From assembly GCA_001898425.1 (NCBI GenBank), contig MKTV01000055.1:53028-93844 (forward strand): a DNA stretch of 40,817 nt, read 5' to 3'. A program made the translations under genes and the position numbers. The notes beneath the pieces are model-generated. The model was not told where the DNA came from and did no database searches. It worked only from the letters and a program-made list of their open reading frames with translations. Within the stretch, counting starts at the first letter, position 1, and every line of letters begins with the position of its first letter. Origin of the DNA: Rhodospirillales bacterium 69-11 (GTDB taxonomy: Bacteria; Pseudomonadota; Alphaproteobacteria; Acetobacterales; Acetobacteraceae). Shown here piece after piece: positions 27,777 to 32,975 of this stretch.

Positions 27777-28058
27777 ATGGCGTCCACGTTTGACACGGTG
27801 GCTGGGATCATTGCGGAAACATGCGATATCGAGCGTGACACGATCACGCCGGACAGCCACGCCATCAACGATCTCGGCATCGACAGCCTCGACTTCCTCG
27901 ACGTCGCCTTCGCCATAGACAAGGCGTTCGGGATCAAGATGCCGCTCGAGCAATGGACGCAAGAGGTGAATGAGGGCAAGGTCTCCTCGGACGAATACTT
28001 CGTCATCAAGAACCTCTGCAGCAACATCGACAAGCTGGTGGCGGCGAAGTCCGCCTGA
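27777..28058 (+). CDS. acpXL: Long-chain acyl carrier protein AcpXL
   Basis: A 93-residue acyl carrier protein. The phosphopantetheine Ser is S37 in [10 protein letters not shown]. It differs from housekeeping AcpP (about 78 residues, DSLDTVEL) in the [10 protein letters not shown] helix and in the tail [20 protein letters not shown] plus YFVIKNLC. These are features I recognise from rhizobial AcpXL, which carries the very-long-chain hydroxy fatty acid of lipid A. GGAAGG lies about eight bases before the ATG. It is followed within three bases by the dehydratase gene and heads a five- or six-gene operon. Whether the product here goes to lipid A is not shown: no LpxXL acyltransferase gene is present in the window. 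Confidence 0.9.
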
Positions 28059-28061
28059 TCC

Positions 28062-28550
28062 ATGCGGCTCGAGTATTTCCAGATGGTCGACCGGATCGTG
28101 GAACTCGATCCGGAGGCGCGTCTGGTGCGCACCGAATGCCGGGTCCCTGACGAGAGCCCGGTGTTCGAAGGACACTTCCCCGGCTACCCCATCCTGCCCG
28201 GCGTCCTGATGATCGAGACGATGGCGCAGACCGGCGGCTGGCTGGTCCTGGCCACGCTCCGATTCGCCGCGATGCCGTTCCTGATCCAGGCGCGCGAGGC
28301 GAAGATGCGCAGCTTCGTCAGCCCCGGCCAGGTGCTGGCCGGCGAAGCGAGCCTGGTGCATGACGGCTCCGGCTTCGCCGTGGTCGAGGCGAAGCTGACC
28401 TCCGACGGCAGGAAGGTGGCGGAGGCCGAGATCCGCTACCGCGTCACCCCCTTCCCGAACGAGACGCTGCGCGCCCAAATGCTGGAGACGGCGCGGCGCA
28501 TCGGCGTCGCCGAGACGCATTTCCCGGAGACTCCCGCCCATGGCGCGTGA
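28062..28550 (+). CDS. FabZ-like 3-hydroxyacyl-ACP dehydratase of the AcpXL system
   Basis: A 162-residue hot-dog fold protein. The active-site region reads VFEGHFPGYPILPGVLMIET then MAQTGG. The catalytic pair is H38 and E52, spaced 14 residues apart as in E. coli FabZ. It would remove water from 3-hydroxyacyl-AcpXL during chain elongation. The start lies three bases after acpXL, and the end overlaps the next gene by 11 bases, so translation is coupled. It matches the position of fabZXL in rhizobial acpXL clusters. It might also accept other long or hydroxylated chains; only assays could tell. Confidence 0.88.
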   Translation: MRLEYFQMVDRIVELDPEARLVRTECRVPDESPVFEGHFPGYPILPGVLMIETMAQTGGWLVLATLRFAAMPFLIQAREAKMRSFVSPGQVLAGEASLVHDGSGFAVVEAKLTSDGRKVAEAEIRYRVTPFPNETLRAQMLETARRIGVAETHFPETPAHGA

Positions 28551-29793
28551 TTCCGACCCGTCGGCCGAACCGGAGCCGGCCGACCCGCGTGCCGCCGCCG
28601 ATCGCACGATCGCGCGCCAGGCGCTGATCACCGGCGTGGGCCTGGTCTCCTGCCTGGGCGAGGGACTGGACGCGCATTGGGAGGGGCTCGACGGCTTCGC
28701 CGCGACCGGCCCCGTGGTCGACACGACGAGCTTCCCGCCCTTCCCCGTGCACCCGATCACGGCGCTGGAATTCGACCGGCAGATCCCGAAGCGGGGCGAC
28801 CAGCGGCAGATGGAAGCCTGGCAGCGGATCGGCACCTATGCCGCCGGCGTCGCGCTGGAGGCCGCCGGCATCAAGGGCAATGCCGACCTCCTGGGCCGCA
28901 TGGACATGATCGTCGCCGCGGGCGGCGGGGAGCGGGACTACGCGGTCGACGCGGCGATCCTCGCCGGGCTGCCCAAGGCGGACGATCCCGGCGCCTTCCT
29001 CAACGAGCACCTGCTGAGCGACCTGCGGCCGACGCTGTTCCTCGCCCAGCTCTCCAACCTGCTCGCCGGCAACATCTCGATCGTGCATGGGGTGGTCGGC
29101 TCGTCGCGCACCTTCATGGGCGAGGAATCCAGCGGCGCCGACGCGGTGCGCATCGCCTGCGCGCGCATCGCCGCGGGCCAGGGGGATTTGTTCCTGGTGG
29201 GCGGCTCCTACAACGCCCAGCGCCCGGACACGCTGCTGCACTACGCGATGGGCGGCAAGCTGTGGAAGGGCGCCCCCACCCCGGTCTGGGCCCGCCAGGA
29301 CGCAGGCGGCGGCATGACCCTCGGGTCGATGGGATGCTTCCTGGTGATCGAGAGCCGATCCCATGCCGCGGCGCGGGGGGCGACCCCGCTCGCCCATGTC
29401 GCGGCGATCGCCACCGACCGCTGCCGCCGCCGCCCCGGCGAGGCCGCCGCGGTCGCGGACCGCCAGCTCGCCACGCTCGCCGGCCAGTACGACGCCGCCC
29501 GCACCGCCGTGATCTCCGGTGCCTCCGGCGTGGCCGACCCGACCACGGAGGAACGCGCGGTCCTCGAACGTCTCGGCCTTCCGGTGCGGGCCACCGGCTC
29601 CGCGATCGGGCACGGCATGGAGCCCAGCTTCCTCGCCAACCTGGCGATCGCCGCCGGCGCCGTCGCCCGCGGCCGGCTGTTCGCCCCGCTCGAGCTGGCC
29701 GAGGCTGCAATGGAGGGGCCCCTCGCCCAGGCCCTGGTCACCGGCTGGGGGCACTGGCGCGGCGAGAGCATCGCGCTCGTCGCCGCCGCCTGA
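28540..29793 (+). CDS. Ketosynthase-fold protein lacking the active-site Cys (FabF2XL position; chain-length-factor-like)
   Basis: A 417-residue thiolase-fold protein aligned over its length with the next gene's product. At the Cys site the partner reads TSTACASGG; this protein reads TFMGEESSGA, placing E196 at the Cys position. The first catalytic His (NAHGTST in the partner) is replaced in VISGASGVAD, about S329. The Lys of NKSMIGH is lost (ATGSAIGH, G353), while H358 remains. It therefore should not condense acyl chains. The pattern recalls chain-length factors of type II polyketide synthases, where Gln or Glu replaces Cys and the protein shapes the KS pocket. It overlaps the dehydratase gene by 11 bases and ends nine bases before the active KS. 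In rhizobia this position is annotated fabF2XL. Confidence 0.85.
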   Translation: MARDSDPSAEPEPADPRAAADRTIARQALITGVGLVSCLGEGLDAHWEGLDGFAATGPVVDTTSFPPFPVHPITALEFDRQIPKRGDQRQMEAWQRIGTYAAGVALEAAGIKGNADLLGRMDMIVAAGGGERDYAVDAAILAGLPKADDPGAFLNEHLLSDLRPTLFLAQLSNLLAGNISIVHGVVGSSRTFMGEESSGADAVRIACARIAAGQGDLFLVGGSYNAQRPDTLLHYAMGGKLWKGAPTPVWARQDAGGGMTLGSMGCFLVIESRSHAAARGATPLAHVAAIATDRCRRRPGEAAAVADRQLATLAGQYDAARTAVISGASGVADPTTEERAVLERLGLPVRATGSAIGHGMEPSFLANLAIAAGAVARGRLFAPLELAEAAMEGPLAQALVTGWGHWRGESIALVAAA

Positions 29794-29802
29794 GGAGCTG
29801 TC

Positions 29803-31086
29803 ATGGCACAGGATACCGACCATCTCGGGCGCCCCATCGTCGCGGTCACCGGCCTCGGCGTGCTCACCTCCCTCGGCGAGGGCCAGGCCGCCAACTGGGC
29901 GGCGCTGACAGCCGGCACGTCCGGCATCCGCCGCATCAGCCGCTTCCCGATCGCCGGGTTGCGCACCACCATCGCCGGCACCGTCGACTTCGTCGCGGTC
30001 GACGACCCCTCCGGCCCCGCCTTGTCGGAGCGCCTGGCCGAACGGGTGATCGCCGAGGCGATCGCGGAGGCGAGGATCGGCGCGGACGGCGACTTCCCCG
30101 GCCCGCTCTTCCTGGCGCTGCCGCCGATCGAACTGGAATGGACGCAGCGCAGCATGCTCGCCGCGGCGGCCGGGGCGAACGAGACGATCGGCTATCCCGA
30201 CCTGCTGCGCGCCGCCGCCGCCGGCGACCGTGGCGCGGTGTACGAACGGTTCCTGTTCGGCTCCGTGGGCGAGCGGCTCGCGGACCGCTTCGGCACCAAG
30301 GGCTCGCCCATCGCCACCTCCACGGCCTGCGCCTCCGGCGGCACCTCCATCCAGCTGGGCGTCGAGGCGATCCGGCGTGGTGAGACCGACGTCGCGCTCT
30401 GCGTCGGCACCGATGCCTCGGTGAACCCGGAAAGCCTGATCCGCTTCTCCCTGCTCTCCGCGCTGTCCACCCGCAACGACCCGCCCGCGGCGGCATCCCG
30501 TCCGTTCAGCAAGGACCGCGACGGGTTCATCATGTCCGAGGGCGCCGGCGCCCTGGTGCTGGAAAGCCTCGCGCATGCCCGCGCCCGCGGCGCCACGATC
30601 CTGGGCCTGATCGAGGGCTGCGGAGAGGCCGCCGACGGGTTCCACCGGACCCGCTCCTCGCCCGACGGCAAGCCGATCGTCGCCTGCATGCGGCGCGCGC
30701 TGGAGGATGCCGGGATCGGACCCGATTCGGTCGACTACGTGAACGCCCACGGCACCAGCACGCCCGAGAACGACAAGATGGAGTGGGTCGGGCTCACCAC
30801 GGTGTTCGGCGATCGCGCGGGGCGGATCCCGGTCTCGTCGAACAAGTCCATGATCGGCCACACGCTGACCGCGGCCGGCGCGATCGAGGCGATCTTCACG
30901 CTGCTGACGATCCGCAATGGCCTGCTGCCGCCCACGATCAACTACGAGACGCCCGATCCGGCGATCCCGATCGACTGCGTGCCCAACACCGCGCGCCCCG
31001 GCACCGTCCGCCACGCGATCTCCAACTCCTTCGGCTTCGGCGGGCAGAATGTCTGCCTCGTGCTGGGCGCCGCACCACAGGATTGA
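29803..31086 (+). CDS. Beta-ketoacyl-ACP synthase II (FabF1XL position)
   Basis: A 427-residue condensing enzyme with the complete catalytic set: C176 in TSTACASGG, H316 in VNAHGTSTPEND, K348 and H353 in SSNKSMIGHTLTAAGA. GFGGQNVCLVLG near the C terminus is the usual KAS glycine stretch. It would add two-carbon units from malonyl-ACP to acyl-AcpXL. It lies nine bases after the Cys-less paralogue, an arrangement like KS-CLF pairs, and four bases before the reductase. It corresponds to fabF1XL of rhizobial clusters. Housekeeping FabF is presumably elsewhere in the genome. Confidence 0.92.
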   Translation: MAQDTDHLGRPIVAVTGLGVLTSLGEGQAANWAALTAGTSGIRRISRFPIAGLRTTIAGTVDFVAVDDPSGPALSERLAERVIAEAIAEARIGADGDFPGPLFLALPPIELEWTQRSMLAAAAGANETIGYPDLLRAAAAGDRGAVYERFLFGSVGERLADRFGTKGSPIATSTACASGGTSIQLGVEAIRRGETDVALCVGTDASVNPESLIRFSLLSALSTRNDPPAAASRPFSKDRDGFIMSEGAGALVLESLAHARARGATILGLIEGCGEAADGFHRTRSSPDGKPIVACMRRALEDAGIGPDSVDYVNAHGTSTPENDKMEWVGLTTVFGDRAGRIPVSSNKSMIGHTLTAAGAIEAIFTLLTIRNGLLPPTINYETPDPAIPIDCVPNTARPGTVRHAISNSFGFGGQNVCLVLGAAPQD

Positions 31087-31089
31087 GCC

Positions 31090-31827
31090 ATGACCGACAC
31101 GCCCCCTCCCCGGCCGCGCGCGCTGGTGATCGGCGGGCGGCGGGGCATCGGCGCCGCGGTGGTCGAGACCCTCGCCGCACGCGGCCTTGCCGTCACCTAC
31201 ACGTACCGCACCGAACCGGGTCCGGTGCGGGACGGCGTCGACGCCCTGGCGCTCGACCTCGCGGACCGCGACGCCGTTGCCGCCTTCGCCGCGGCCCAGG
31301 AAGACGCGCCGGCCTGGGATGCCTTCGTGCAGGTCGGCGGCACCACCTATGACGCGCTCGCCGCCATGATGGACCAGGATGCGGCGGAGCGGGCAATGCA
31401 GGTGAACTACTTCGCATTCGCCCGCCTCGTCCGCGGCGTGATCCGCCCGATGCTCCGCGCCCGACGCGGGCGCATCGTCGCGATCGGATCGGTCATCGGG
31501 CAGTTCGCCACCCAGGGCAACGCGGCCTACGGCGCCACCAAGGCGGCGCTGCTCGCGCATGTCCGCAGCCTGGCGATCGAGAGCGCGAAGCGCGGCGTGA
31601 CGGTGAACTACGTGGCGCCCGGCTTCATCGACACCGAGATGATGGCGCCCTTCGCCGCCCATCGCAGCGCGACCGAGGGACGCATCCCTGCCGGCCGTTA
31701 CGGCCGGCCGGAGGAGGTCGCCGCCCTGGTCGCGTTCCTGGTCTCGCCGGAGGCGTCCTACGTCAACGGTGCCTACATCCCGGTGGATGGCGGGCTCACC
31801 GCCTCCGCCGGCGTGCCGCGCGCCTGA
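31090..31827 (+). CDS. SDR family 3-oxoacyl-ACP reductase (FabG-like)
   Basis: A 245-residue short-chain dehydrogenase. The nucleotide motif is GGRRGIGAA (about residues 15-23), with the usual TGxxxGIG first residues changed to IGG. The catalytic tetrad is complete: N106 in MQVNYFAF, S134 in IGSVIGQ, Y147 and K151 in AAYGATKAAL. The C terminus YVNGAYIPVDGG is typical of FabG. It starts four bases after the ketosynthase, so it is the likely ketoreductase step of AcpXL chain elongation. As I recall, rhizobial clusters carry an alcohol dehydrogenase-type gene (fabXL5) here, so this is a different reductase choice. No enoyl reductase is present. Confidence 0.88.
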   Translation: MTDTPPPRPRALVIGGRRGIGAAVVETLAARGLAVTYTYRTEPGPVRDGVDALALDLADRDAVAAFAAAQEDAPAWDAFVQVGGTTYDALAAMMDQDAAERAMQVNYFAFARLVRGVIRPMLRARRGRIVAIGSVIGQFATQGNAAYGATKAALLAHVRSLAIESAKRGVTVNYVAPGFIDTEMMAPFAAHRSATEGRIPAGRYGRPEEVAALVAFLVSPEASYVNGAYIPVDGGLTASAGVPRA

Positions 31828-31845: not shown

Positions 31846-32772
31846 ATGCCGATCAAGATCCCGAACGATCTGCCGGCCCGCGCCGTGCTCGAGCAGGAGC
31901 GGGTGCCGGTCATCAGCGAGACGGCCGCTCTGCGCCAGGACATAAGGCCGCTGCAGATCGCGCTGCTCAACCTGATGCCGGAGAAGATCAAGACCGAGAC
32001 GCAGCTTCTGCGCGTCCTCGGCTCCACGCCCCTGCAGGTCGAGATGACCCTGCTGCGCCCGGCGAGCCACACGTCCAGGAACACGCCGCAGGATCACCTG
32101 GCGGCGTTCTACCAGACCTGGGCGGAGGTGCGGGACCGCCGCTTCGACGCGCTGATCGTCACCGGCGCGCCGGTCGAGCACCTGGAATTCGAAGACGTCG
32201 CCTATTGGGACGAGCTGACCGCGATCCTCGACTGGACGCGGACCAACGTGTTCGGGACGCTTTTCATCTGCTGGGGCGCGCAGGCGGCGCTGCATCATTT
32301 CCATGGGCTGCCGAAGCACGCGGTCGGCGCCAAACGGTTCGGCGTGTTCCCGCACCGCGTGCTGCGCCCGTTCGAGCCGCTGGTGGCCGGATTCGACGAC
32401 ACGTTCCCGGTGCCGGTCTCGCGCTACAGCGAGATAAGACATGCCGACCTGGCCGCCGCGCCGGAGATCCAGATCCTGGTCGACTCCGACGAGACCGGGC
32501 TCTGCCTGCTGCAGGATCCGCTGCGCCGCCGCGTCTACATGTTCAACCACCTGGAATACGACGCCGAGACGCTGCTGGGCGAGTACCAGCGGGACCGTGC
32601 GGCGGGGGTCGAGACGGGCGTGCCCTTCAACTACTTCCCGGACGACGATCCGACACGCCCGCCGCGGCTCACCTGGCGGGCCCACCGACACCTGCTGTTC
32701 GGCAATTGGATCAACCAGATCTACCAGGGAACGCCCTTCGATCTCGCGAGCCTGCCGCCCGTCCCGGACTGA
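31846..32772 (+). CDS. metA: Homoserine O-acyltransferase, MetA family (predicted acetyl-CoA-specific)
   Basis: A 308-residue enzyme of the methionine pathway. The nucleophile is C142 in LFICWGAQAAL, with H236 and E238 in FNHLEYD completing the catalytic set. Residue 111, in TGAPVEHLEFEDV, is Glu. In MetA enzymes Gly at this position goes with succinyl-CoA use (E. coli) and Glu with acetyl-CoA (Bacillus cereus), so I predict O-acetylation of homoserine. The start lies 18 bases after the reductase, with GGAA eight bases before the ATG, so it may be read with the acpXL operon although unrelated in function. No SAM riboswitch could fit in that gap. A 16 bp tandem array follows 32 bases past the stop. 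Confidence 0.93.
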   Translation: MPIKIPNDLPARAVLEQERVPVISETAALRQDIRPLQIALLNLMPEKIKTETQLLRVLGSTPLQVEMTLLRPASHTSRNTPQDHLAAFYQTWAEVRDRRFDALIVTGAPVEHLEFEDVAYWDELTAILDWTRTNVFGTLFICWGAQAALHHFHGLPKHAVGAKRFGVFPHRVLRPFEPLVAGFDDTFPVPVSRYSEIRHADLAAAPEIQILVDSDETGLCLLQDPLRRRVYMFNHLEYDAETLLGEYQRDRAAGVETGVPFNYFPDDDPTRPPRLTWRAHRHLLFGNWINQIYQGTPFDLASLPPVPD

Positions 32773-32975
32773 GCGACCCGCGCGGCCCCGCGCGCGCCGG
32801 ACGATCGGATGCCTCGTCGGTCGGATGCCCCGCCGGTCGCATGCCCCCTCGGTCGCATGCCCCGCCGGTCGCATGCCCCCTCGGTCGCATGTCTCGTCCG
32901 GTATGCGGCCCTCTCGCCCCTGGCGGCGGCCCCGAGTCCTGCGCATGATCGCGGCTTCGCTCTGAAGGCCGGACC
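32773..32975. other. 203-base gap with a tandem array
   Basis: Between metA and the GMC oxidoreductase gene on the same strand. Nearly half is the 16 bp array (32805-32900). The remainder shows no promoter I can defend. Confidence 0.6.
32805..32900. repeat. Six tandem 16 bp units 3' of metA
   Basis: Units start at 32805, 32821, 32837, 32853, 32869 and 32885. Examples are TCGGATGCCCCGCCGG and TCGCATGCCCCCTCGG. Units 2-5 alternate between CCCGCCGG and CCCCTCGG ends, giving a 32 bp higher-order period. The inner units carry the palindrome GCATGC. Confidence 0.8.

What the first reader, a model, noticed from the sequence alone, without database searches (positions are those of the whole stretch)
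28540..31086. Ketosynthase plus Cys-less chain-length-factor-like partner in an AcpXL operon
Adjacent genes encode two ketosynthase-fold proteins that align residue for residue around the active site. The second keeps Cys-His-Lys-His (C176, H316, K348, H353). The first has Glu at the Cys site (E196), no His at the first His site (about S329) and Gly for Lys (G353), keeping only H358. This mirrors KS/CLF heterodimers of type II polyketide synthases, where the Cys-less partner sets chain length. Applied to very-long-chain acyl-AcpXL it would give a measured-length mechanism for the C26-C30 chain. In rhizobia both proteins are usually just named FabF.
Basis: partly seen in the sequence, partly recalled or inferred. 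Interest (0 to 1): 0.72.

Follow-up and report, generated by a model that had tools for sequence, protein, structure and literature searches.

The report
Silent partner of lipid-A chain builder
Next to the enzyme that builds the extra-long fatty acid of the outer membrane in many alphaproteobacteria lies a look-alike that has lost its catalytic residues and is inherited together with the working enzyme; it probably pairs with it and shapes the space that holds the very long chain.

Summary
Window 28540-29793 (F2, FabF2XL family) is a ketosynthase-fold protein with Glu at the Cys site and neither the first His nor the Lys. Window 29803-31086 (F1, FabF1XL) keeps Cys-His-Lys-His. The Glu is fixed: 93 of 93 aligned F2 rows, and 45 of 45 genomes from samples not picked by the motif in which the site could be read. 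F1 keeps all four residues in 92 of 92 rows.

The pair occurs together: of 289 class genomes 14 have F1 and 15 have F2; the one mismatch is a contig end. F2's best conserved block (161-185, 0.95 against 0.67 overall) is the dimer-interface segment of ketosynthases. A fused F2-F1 model is confident (pTM 0.89) and matches the PfaC KS-CLF didomain, but fusion favours a dimer.

Best reading: F2 is a non-catalytic, chain-length-factor-like partner of F1. Heterodimerisation is likely; length control by F2 is inferred. Descent from polyketide CLFs is unresolved (p-AU 0.43). The genes are known; the open-access searches listed no paper noting the missing residues.

The parts
27777..28058 (+). acpXL, specialised acyl carrier protein
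   Evidence: NCBIfam NF005079 173.3 bits, cut-off 83; the only over-cut-off match in the genome
28062..28550 (+). FabZ-like 3-hydroxyacyl-ACP dehydratase (fabZXL position); overlaps F2 by 11 bases
   Evidence: Pfam FabA-like domain 2.2e-18; below NCBIfam's FabZ cut-offs; a relative lies between acpXL and F2 in 78 of 80 related loci
28540..29793 (+). F2 (FabF2XL family): ketosynthase-fold protein without the catalytic Cys, first His and Lys
   Evidence: NF005084 539 bits; alignments
28921..28938 (+). F2 residues 128-133 (GGGERD), where polyketide CLF gatekeepers begin; E131 and R132 invariant
   Evidence: 93 of 93 rows for E131 and R132, 92 of 93 for D133; column map
29020..29094 (+). F2 residues 161-185, best conserved block, in line with FabF 128-152
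   Evidence: mean majority frequency 0.95 over 93 rows; interface and tunnel role from family knowledge and passages of PMC9519891
29125..29127 (+). F2 codon 196: Glu in place of the nucleophilic Cys
   Evidence: E in 93 of 93 rows
29515..29517 (+). F2 codon 326: Ser at the first catalytic His column
29596..29598 (+). F2 codon 353: Gly at the catalytic Lys column
   Evidence: G 52, A 32, T 5, Q 2, S 1, gap 1 of 93
29611..29613 (+). F2 codon 358: second His, kept here, replaced in 7 of the 92 rows with a letter there
29803..31086 (+). F1 (FabF1XL family): ketosynthase with the full catalytic set
   Evidence: NF005076 711 bits; C176, H316, K348, H353 in 92 of 92 rows
30328..30330 (+). F1 codon 176: nucleophilic Cys
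   Evidence: 92 of 92 rows
31090..31827 (+). FabG-like ketoreductase, probable last gene of the elongation module
   Evidence: Pfam SDR matches over cut-off; the FabG models of NCBIfam match below cut-off; a relative lies downstream of F1 in 32 of 80 related loci, some of them cut by contig ends

Best explanation
F2 is a ketosynthase that has lost its chemistry and serves as the obligate structural partner of F1. The working enzyme is an F2-F1 heterodimer with one active site: F1 Cys176 takes the acyl chain from AcpXL, and F1 His316/Lys348/His353 carry out the condensation. F2 contributes the opposite wall and floor of the acyl tunnel across the pseudo-twofold interface. Having only one active site frees the space that a second acyl chain would fill in a FabF homodimer, so a single C26-C30 chain can be housed; F2's conserved GGGERD...D137 and E195/E196 cluster forms the end of that space. 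With the neighbouring FabZ- and FabG-like enzymes and AcpXL it makes a dedicated elongation module, built like the KS/CLF/ACP/KR/DH set of reducing type II polyketide systems. Shown here: loss of catalytic residues, its fixation, co-occurrence, conservation pattern, predicted fold. Shown by others: FabF2XL is needed for the very long chain in Agrobacterium. Inferred: heterodimer in the cell, tunnel, and length control.
For: Glu at the Cys site in 93 of 93 rows, with no Lys or first His in F2; F1 complete in 92 of 92. Samples not picked by the motif: 34 of 34 genomes over the cut-off of the family HMM (15, 19; read), and 34 of 34 AcpXL-anchored loci that reach the site out of 37 examined, 3 being cut by contig ends; 45 distinct genomes by my count. 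Co-occurrence: F1 (E up to 1e-120) in 14 and F2 (over cut-off) in 15 of the same 289 class genomes, all 14 shared, the extra F2 (G227) lying at a contig end. F2 then F1, same strand, in 80 of 80 related loci. F2 161-185 at 0.95 against 0.67 for the whole of F2, while the aligned part of F1 (146-165) is at 0.70 against 0.76 for F1 and the stretch before it (124-145) at 0.49. FabF Asn140 is kept in F2 (21 of 21) but is Gly in 20 of 21 F1. Fused model pLDDT 89.1, pTM 0.89; Foldseek rank 3 is PfaC KS-CLF 6riw over 949 columns with TM 0.71 of the model, against about 0.44 for one-half matches. F2 131-140 has pLDDT 66 alone and 89 beside F1. An A. fabrum fabF2XL insertion mutant had no very-long-chain acid in lipid A and was partly restored by fabF2XL on a plasmid (PMC11901934, section 2.2 read). 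KS/CLF tunnels run to the heterodimer interface (PMC12664062 passages).
Against: No experiment shows the complex. The model was made from F2 and F1 read as one chain, and two linked ketosynthase folds would tend to dimerise in any case. I had no coordinates, so no tunnel was measured. 6riw aligned with rmsd 7.2, and being KS first it pairs F2 with KS, which a pseudo-twofold dimer allows but which is no proof. The best conserved F2 stretch stays poorly predicted beside F1 (161-170: pLDDT 54 alone, 62 with F1) and 171-180 falls from 89 to 83; the two alignments also differ (94 and 40 rows). F2 keeps the second His in 85 of 92 rows, which a purely structural role does not explain. F2 R132, at the actinorhodin CLF F109 column, does not vary, so it cannot explain C26 versus C28 versus C30. 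The A. fabrum mutant is in the first gene of a shared operon, so part of its defect could come from genes downstream; restoration was only partial.
Confidence: 0.7

Rival explanations
1. F2 is a priming decarboxylase, like KSQ domains: Glu in place of Cys lets it decarboxylate malonyl-AcpXL to make the starter, and it does not set length.
For: Other residues at the Cys site are known in loading-module ketosynthases (recalled, no call); Glu is fixed and H358 is kept in 85 of 92 rows.
Against: First His and Lys are absent in the 92 rows with letters there, and H358 is replaced in 7, so no catalytic His pair is conserved.
Confidence: 0.08
2. F1 and F2 each form homodimers; F2 has taken on another role, such as holding AcpXL or the operon enzymes together.
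For: The classical FabF enzymes are homodimers (recalled); F2 alone folds confidently in prediction (pLDDT 89.5).
Against: Co-occurrence and adjacency; conservation of the interface segment in F2 more than in F1; better confidence of F2 131-140 beside F1.
Confidence: 0.1
3. F2-F1 is an obligate heterodimer, but F2 only stabilises F1 (as proposed for PqsB with PqsC) and chain length is fixed elsewhere, for example by F1's own variable 124-145 stretch or by the acyltransferase LpxXL.
For: F1 124-145 varies (0.49) while F2 E131, R132 and D137 are fixed; PqsB lacks the catalytic residues and is given a scaffolding role (PMC4807248 passages).
Against: In that same case the PqsBC cavity extends into PqsB, and in KS/CLF enzymes changes in the interface channel do change length (PMC12664062 passages).
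Confidence: 0.3

Closest known systems
FabF2XL / FabF1XL of the rhizobial acpXL-lpxXL cluster
   Same: Same families (NF005084 and NF005076 over cut-off); same gene order acpXL-fabZXL-fabF2XL-fabF1XL
   Different: Here followed by a FabG-like gene and a metA-like gene instead of adhA2XL and lpxXL. In the passages seen, both proteins are called 3-oxoacyl-ACP or beta-ketoacyl-ACP synthase or fatty acid elongation proteins
Type II polyketide KS/CLF heterodimers (actinorhodin 1tqy)
   Same: Adjacent pair, one partner with Cys-His-Lys-His, the other without the nucleophile (Gln in 4 of 5 CLF-position proteins fetched, His in 1); ACP beside them in 4 of the 5 stretches seen
   Different: Gene order reversed (KS first in 5 of 5 fetched pairs); the 5 CLFs keep Lys and have Arg at the second His column, F2 the opposite; product a saturated chain on AcpXL
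Aryl polyene ApeO-ApeC and ishigamide Iga11-Iga12
   Same: KS-CLF heterodimer with separate reducing and dehydrating enzymes and free ACPs (PMC8358021 passages)
   Different: A. baumannii ApeC keeps only one thiolase fold domain; F2 is a full-length ketosynthase fold
PfaC KS-CLF of PUFA synthase (6riw)
   Same: The one listed PDB chain that matches more than one half of the fused model; long fatty chains (recalled)
   Different: KS and CLF in one polypeptide, KS first
PqsBC of Pseudomonas aeruginosa
   Same: Heterodimer of one active and one inactive thiolase-fold subunit; cavity extends into the partner (PMC4807248 passages)
   Different: FabH-like; a single condensation with a CoA substrate
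KasA of mycobacteria
   Same: Acyl channel that includes a helix of the partner subunit (PMC9519891 passages); very long chains (recalled)
   Different: Homodimer with two active sites

Membership tests
FabF/KAS II catalytic ketosynthase (for F2) | Cys-His-Lys-His catalytic residues | tested here: not met
   E196, S326, G353; only H358 kept
FabF/KAS II catalytic ketosynthase (for F1) | Cys-His-Lys-His catalytic residues | tested here: met
   92 of 92 rows
FabF2XL family (NF005084) | Score over NCBI's cut-off | tested here: met
   539 against 320 bits; best match under the cut-off in 289 class genomes 94 bits
acpXL-lpxXL cluster | acpXL, fabF2XL and fabF1XL together in order | tested here: met
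acpXL-lpxXL cluster | lpxXL acyltransferase in the cluster | tested here: not met
   next genes are FabG-like and metA-like; the one Lip_A_acyltrans match in the genome is on another contig and was not identified as LpxXL
KS/CLF heterodimer (works like) | Adjacent pair, one partner lacking the nucleophile | tested here: met
KS/CLF heterodimer (works like) | Partners inherited together | tested here: met
   14 of 14 genomes with F1 have F2; 14 of 15 with F2 have F1, the other at a contig end
KS/CLF heterodimer (works like) | Physical heterodimer | tested here: inconclusive
   fused-chain model pTM 0.89, biased by the fusion
KS/CLF heterodimer (works like) | Partner residues set product length | not testable with these tools
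   needs enzyme assays; no coordinates for a tunnel
Polyketide CLF family (is a member of) | Common descent with CLFs | tested here: inconclusive
   best quick tree puts F2 with F1 (support 81.5); F2+CLF not rejected, p-AU 0.431
Polyketide CLF family (is a member of) | CLF residue pattern at the old active site (Gln or His at the Cys column, Lys kept), as in the 5 CLFs fetched | tested here: not met
   F2 has Glu at the Cys column and Gly or Ala in most rows at the Lys column

The most novel reading that the evidence does not exclude
The F2-F1 pair is an independently evolved ruler for a fatty acid of the outer membrane: a second invention of the chain-length-factor principle. F2's conserved charged cluster (E131, R132, D133, D137, E195, E196) sits at the far end of one long tunnel and recognises the hydroxyl at the next-to-last carbon of the chain, so growth stops when the hydroxyl end docks there. 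This would fit a chain started from a 3-hydroxybutyryl unit, which after twelve extensions gives exactly 27-hydroxy-C28. The starter idea is arithmetic and speculation, not a result of any call.
Probability: 0.12. Interest if true: 0.88.

Novelty: new variant of a known kind. Interest (0 to 1): 0.62.

Why it matters
None of the passages I read says how the C26-C30 acid of lipid A in rhizobia and their relatives gets its length. A catalytically dead ketosynthase as obligate partner gives a concrete, testable mechanism. It would also carry the chain-length-factor principle from polyketide metabolism into outer-membrane synthesis. And it corrects an annotation: F2 is named a synthase, but the Cys, first His and Lys of such an enzyme are absent from the aligned relatives.

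Tried and rejected

Bias and dropped rows: the 80 loci were found with patterns that include SRTFMGEE, so their Glu is partly selected; hence the HMM- and AcpXL-anchored samples. The HMM itself was presumably built from such proteins, but its members score 371-625 bits against 94 for the next protein, so one residue cannot decide membership. Of 70 over-cut-off AcpXL matches (7, 63) only the best 37 were fetched and read. In one search, F2 rows L080 and L092 fell out by a length filter (start chosen wrongly by my script), F1 rows L051 and L074 because the contig ends, and L014 is partial. One search reported 33 GE motifs and one false match in a wrong frame (L177), corrected. One search used wrong orientations for some loci and was redone. 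The tree held an outlier, L124, left out; both are quick trees.
Full report
What is there. The plus strand of the window carries, in order, acpXL (27777-28058), a FabZ-like dehydratase (28062-28550), F2 (28540-29793), F1 (29803-31086), a FabG-like reductase (31090-31827) and a metA-like gene (31846-32772). AcpXL, F2 and F1 score over NCBI's cut-offs for NF005079, NF005084 and NF005076; I take these to be the families of the rhizobial lipid A very-long-chain cluster, because their members stand in the same order. The genome has one over-cut-off AcpXL match. The closest named relatives found are Acetobacteraceae (F2 77% identical in L043).

The residues. F2 has Glu196 where FabF has its nucleophilic Cys, Ser326 at the first His, Gly353 at the Lys, and keeps His358. 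F1 has C176, H316, K348 and H353. Over 93 F2 rows E195 and E196 are invariant; the Lys column is G 52, A 32, T 5, Q 2, S 1, gap 1; H358 is replaced in 7 of the 92 rows with a letter there. Over 92 F1 rows all four catalytic residues are invariant. By its residues F2 is not an ordinary condensing enzyme.

Is the Glu an effect of how relatives were found? The 80 loci were found partly with the motif itself. I therefore used two samples not picked by it. The family HMM gave 15 over-cut-off genomes of 289 in the class and 19 further ones from a phylum sample; all 34 have Glu-Glu. AcpXL alone gave 37 loci, the best of 70 over-cut-off matches; 34 reach the site and all 34 have Glu-Glu; L127, L132 and L180 are cut by contig ends. 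Together these are 45 distinct genomes by my count. In the phylum sample the family is over cut-off in 22 of 249 genomes: 22 of the 67 listed in the window's class and 0 of the other 182.

Pairing. In the same 289 class genomes, F1 at E up to 1e-120 is in 14 and F2 over cut-off in 15; all 14 coincide, and the fifteenth F2 (G227) lies at a contig end. In 80 of 80 named loci F2 precedes F1 on the same strand; in 78 the whole order acpXL-fabZ-F2-F1 was found, L067 lacking acpXL at its contig end and L111 lacking a FabZ match.

Conservation. F2 161-185 averages 0.95 majority frequency, against 0.67 for F2 as a whole and 0.50-0.86 for its other blocks. The aligned part of F1 (146-165) is at 0.70 against 0.76 for F1 as a whole, and the stretch before it (124-145) at 0.49. 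In ketosynthases this region lies at the dimer interface and lines the acyl channel (family knowledge); for KasA the channel is described as made by helices including one of the other subunit (PMC9519891 passages). F2 keeps the FabF Asn140 of this region, which is Gly in 20 of 21 F1. So the part of F2 under strongest selection is the part that would face F1, as a structural partner predicts.

Where a ruler would lie. The actinorhodin CLF sequence printed lets the length-setting positions F109, T112 and F116 (positions recalled from the literature, from no call) be placed through the column map: they fall on F2 R132, A135 and A139. R132 is invariant, with E131 (93 of 93), D133 (92 of 93) and D137 (93 of 93); A135 and A139 are small or polar and vary. 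The presumed tunnel end in F2 is thus charged and fixed, unlike the bulky gate of polyketide CLFs.

Descent. With KS and CLF-position sequences from five plasmid clusters, F2, F1, KS and CLF are each one group. The best tree joins F2 with F1 (support 81.5) and KS with CLF (90.8), but F2 with CLF is not rejected (p-AU 0.431). I call F2 CLF-like in design, not a CLF by membership.

Function known from others. In Agrobacterium fabrum the fabF2XL insertion mutant had no very-long-chain acid in lipid A, and fabF2XL on a plasmid restored it partly (PMC11901934, section 2.2 read). The mutated gene heads an operon with fabF1XL, adhlA2XL and lpxXL (passages), so effects on these cannot be excluded. In Bradyrhizobium ORS278 no mutant could be obtained in acpXL, fabZXL, fabF1XL or fabF2XL (PMC5613085 passages). 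A protein without the catalytic residues is thus needed for the product, which fits an essential partner.

Mechanism. I commit to a heterodimer with one active site in F1 and F2 lining the far side of the tunnel. Dropping the second active site frees the space where two acyl chains would meet in a homodimer. I put the partner role at about 0.8 and control of length by F2 at about 0.5.

Novelty. The genes are known, and inactive-partner condensing enzymes are known in polyketides, PUFA synthase and PqsBC. What the open-access searches did not turn up (with cut listings) is a statement that FabF2XL is such a partner.

Noticed in passing
PMC7663294 (passages) says Mesorhizobium loti lacks fabZXL and uses the housekeeping FabZ.
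   Followed up: partly
window 31090-31827: A FabG-like gene follows F1 here and in 32 of 80 related loci; in A. fabrum this place is taken by adhlA2XL, whose loss also removes the very long chain. An enoyl reductase role for that dehydrogenase is worth testing (my guess).
   Followed up: partly
window 32805-32891: Tandem array of a 16-base unit, 5.4 copies (32-base unit, 2.7 copies), between the metA-like gene and the next large ORF.
   Followed up: no
L124 8533-11541: An E. coli plasmid carries a ketosynthase, a 261-residue neighbour called hypothetical, an ACP and an SDR gene beside a C39 peptidase/ABC exporter and TolC-family gene: possibly another ketosynthase system tied to an exported product.
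   Followed up: no
G000 contigs C29, C76, C118: The host genome holds several very large open frames with ketosynthase domains (up to 3966 codons), probably modular polyketide synthases.
   Followed up: no
G000:C62:72639-73481 (L193): The only Lip_A_acyltrans family match in the genome lies away from the AcpXL operon; whether it is LpxXL was not settled.
   Followed up: partly
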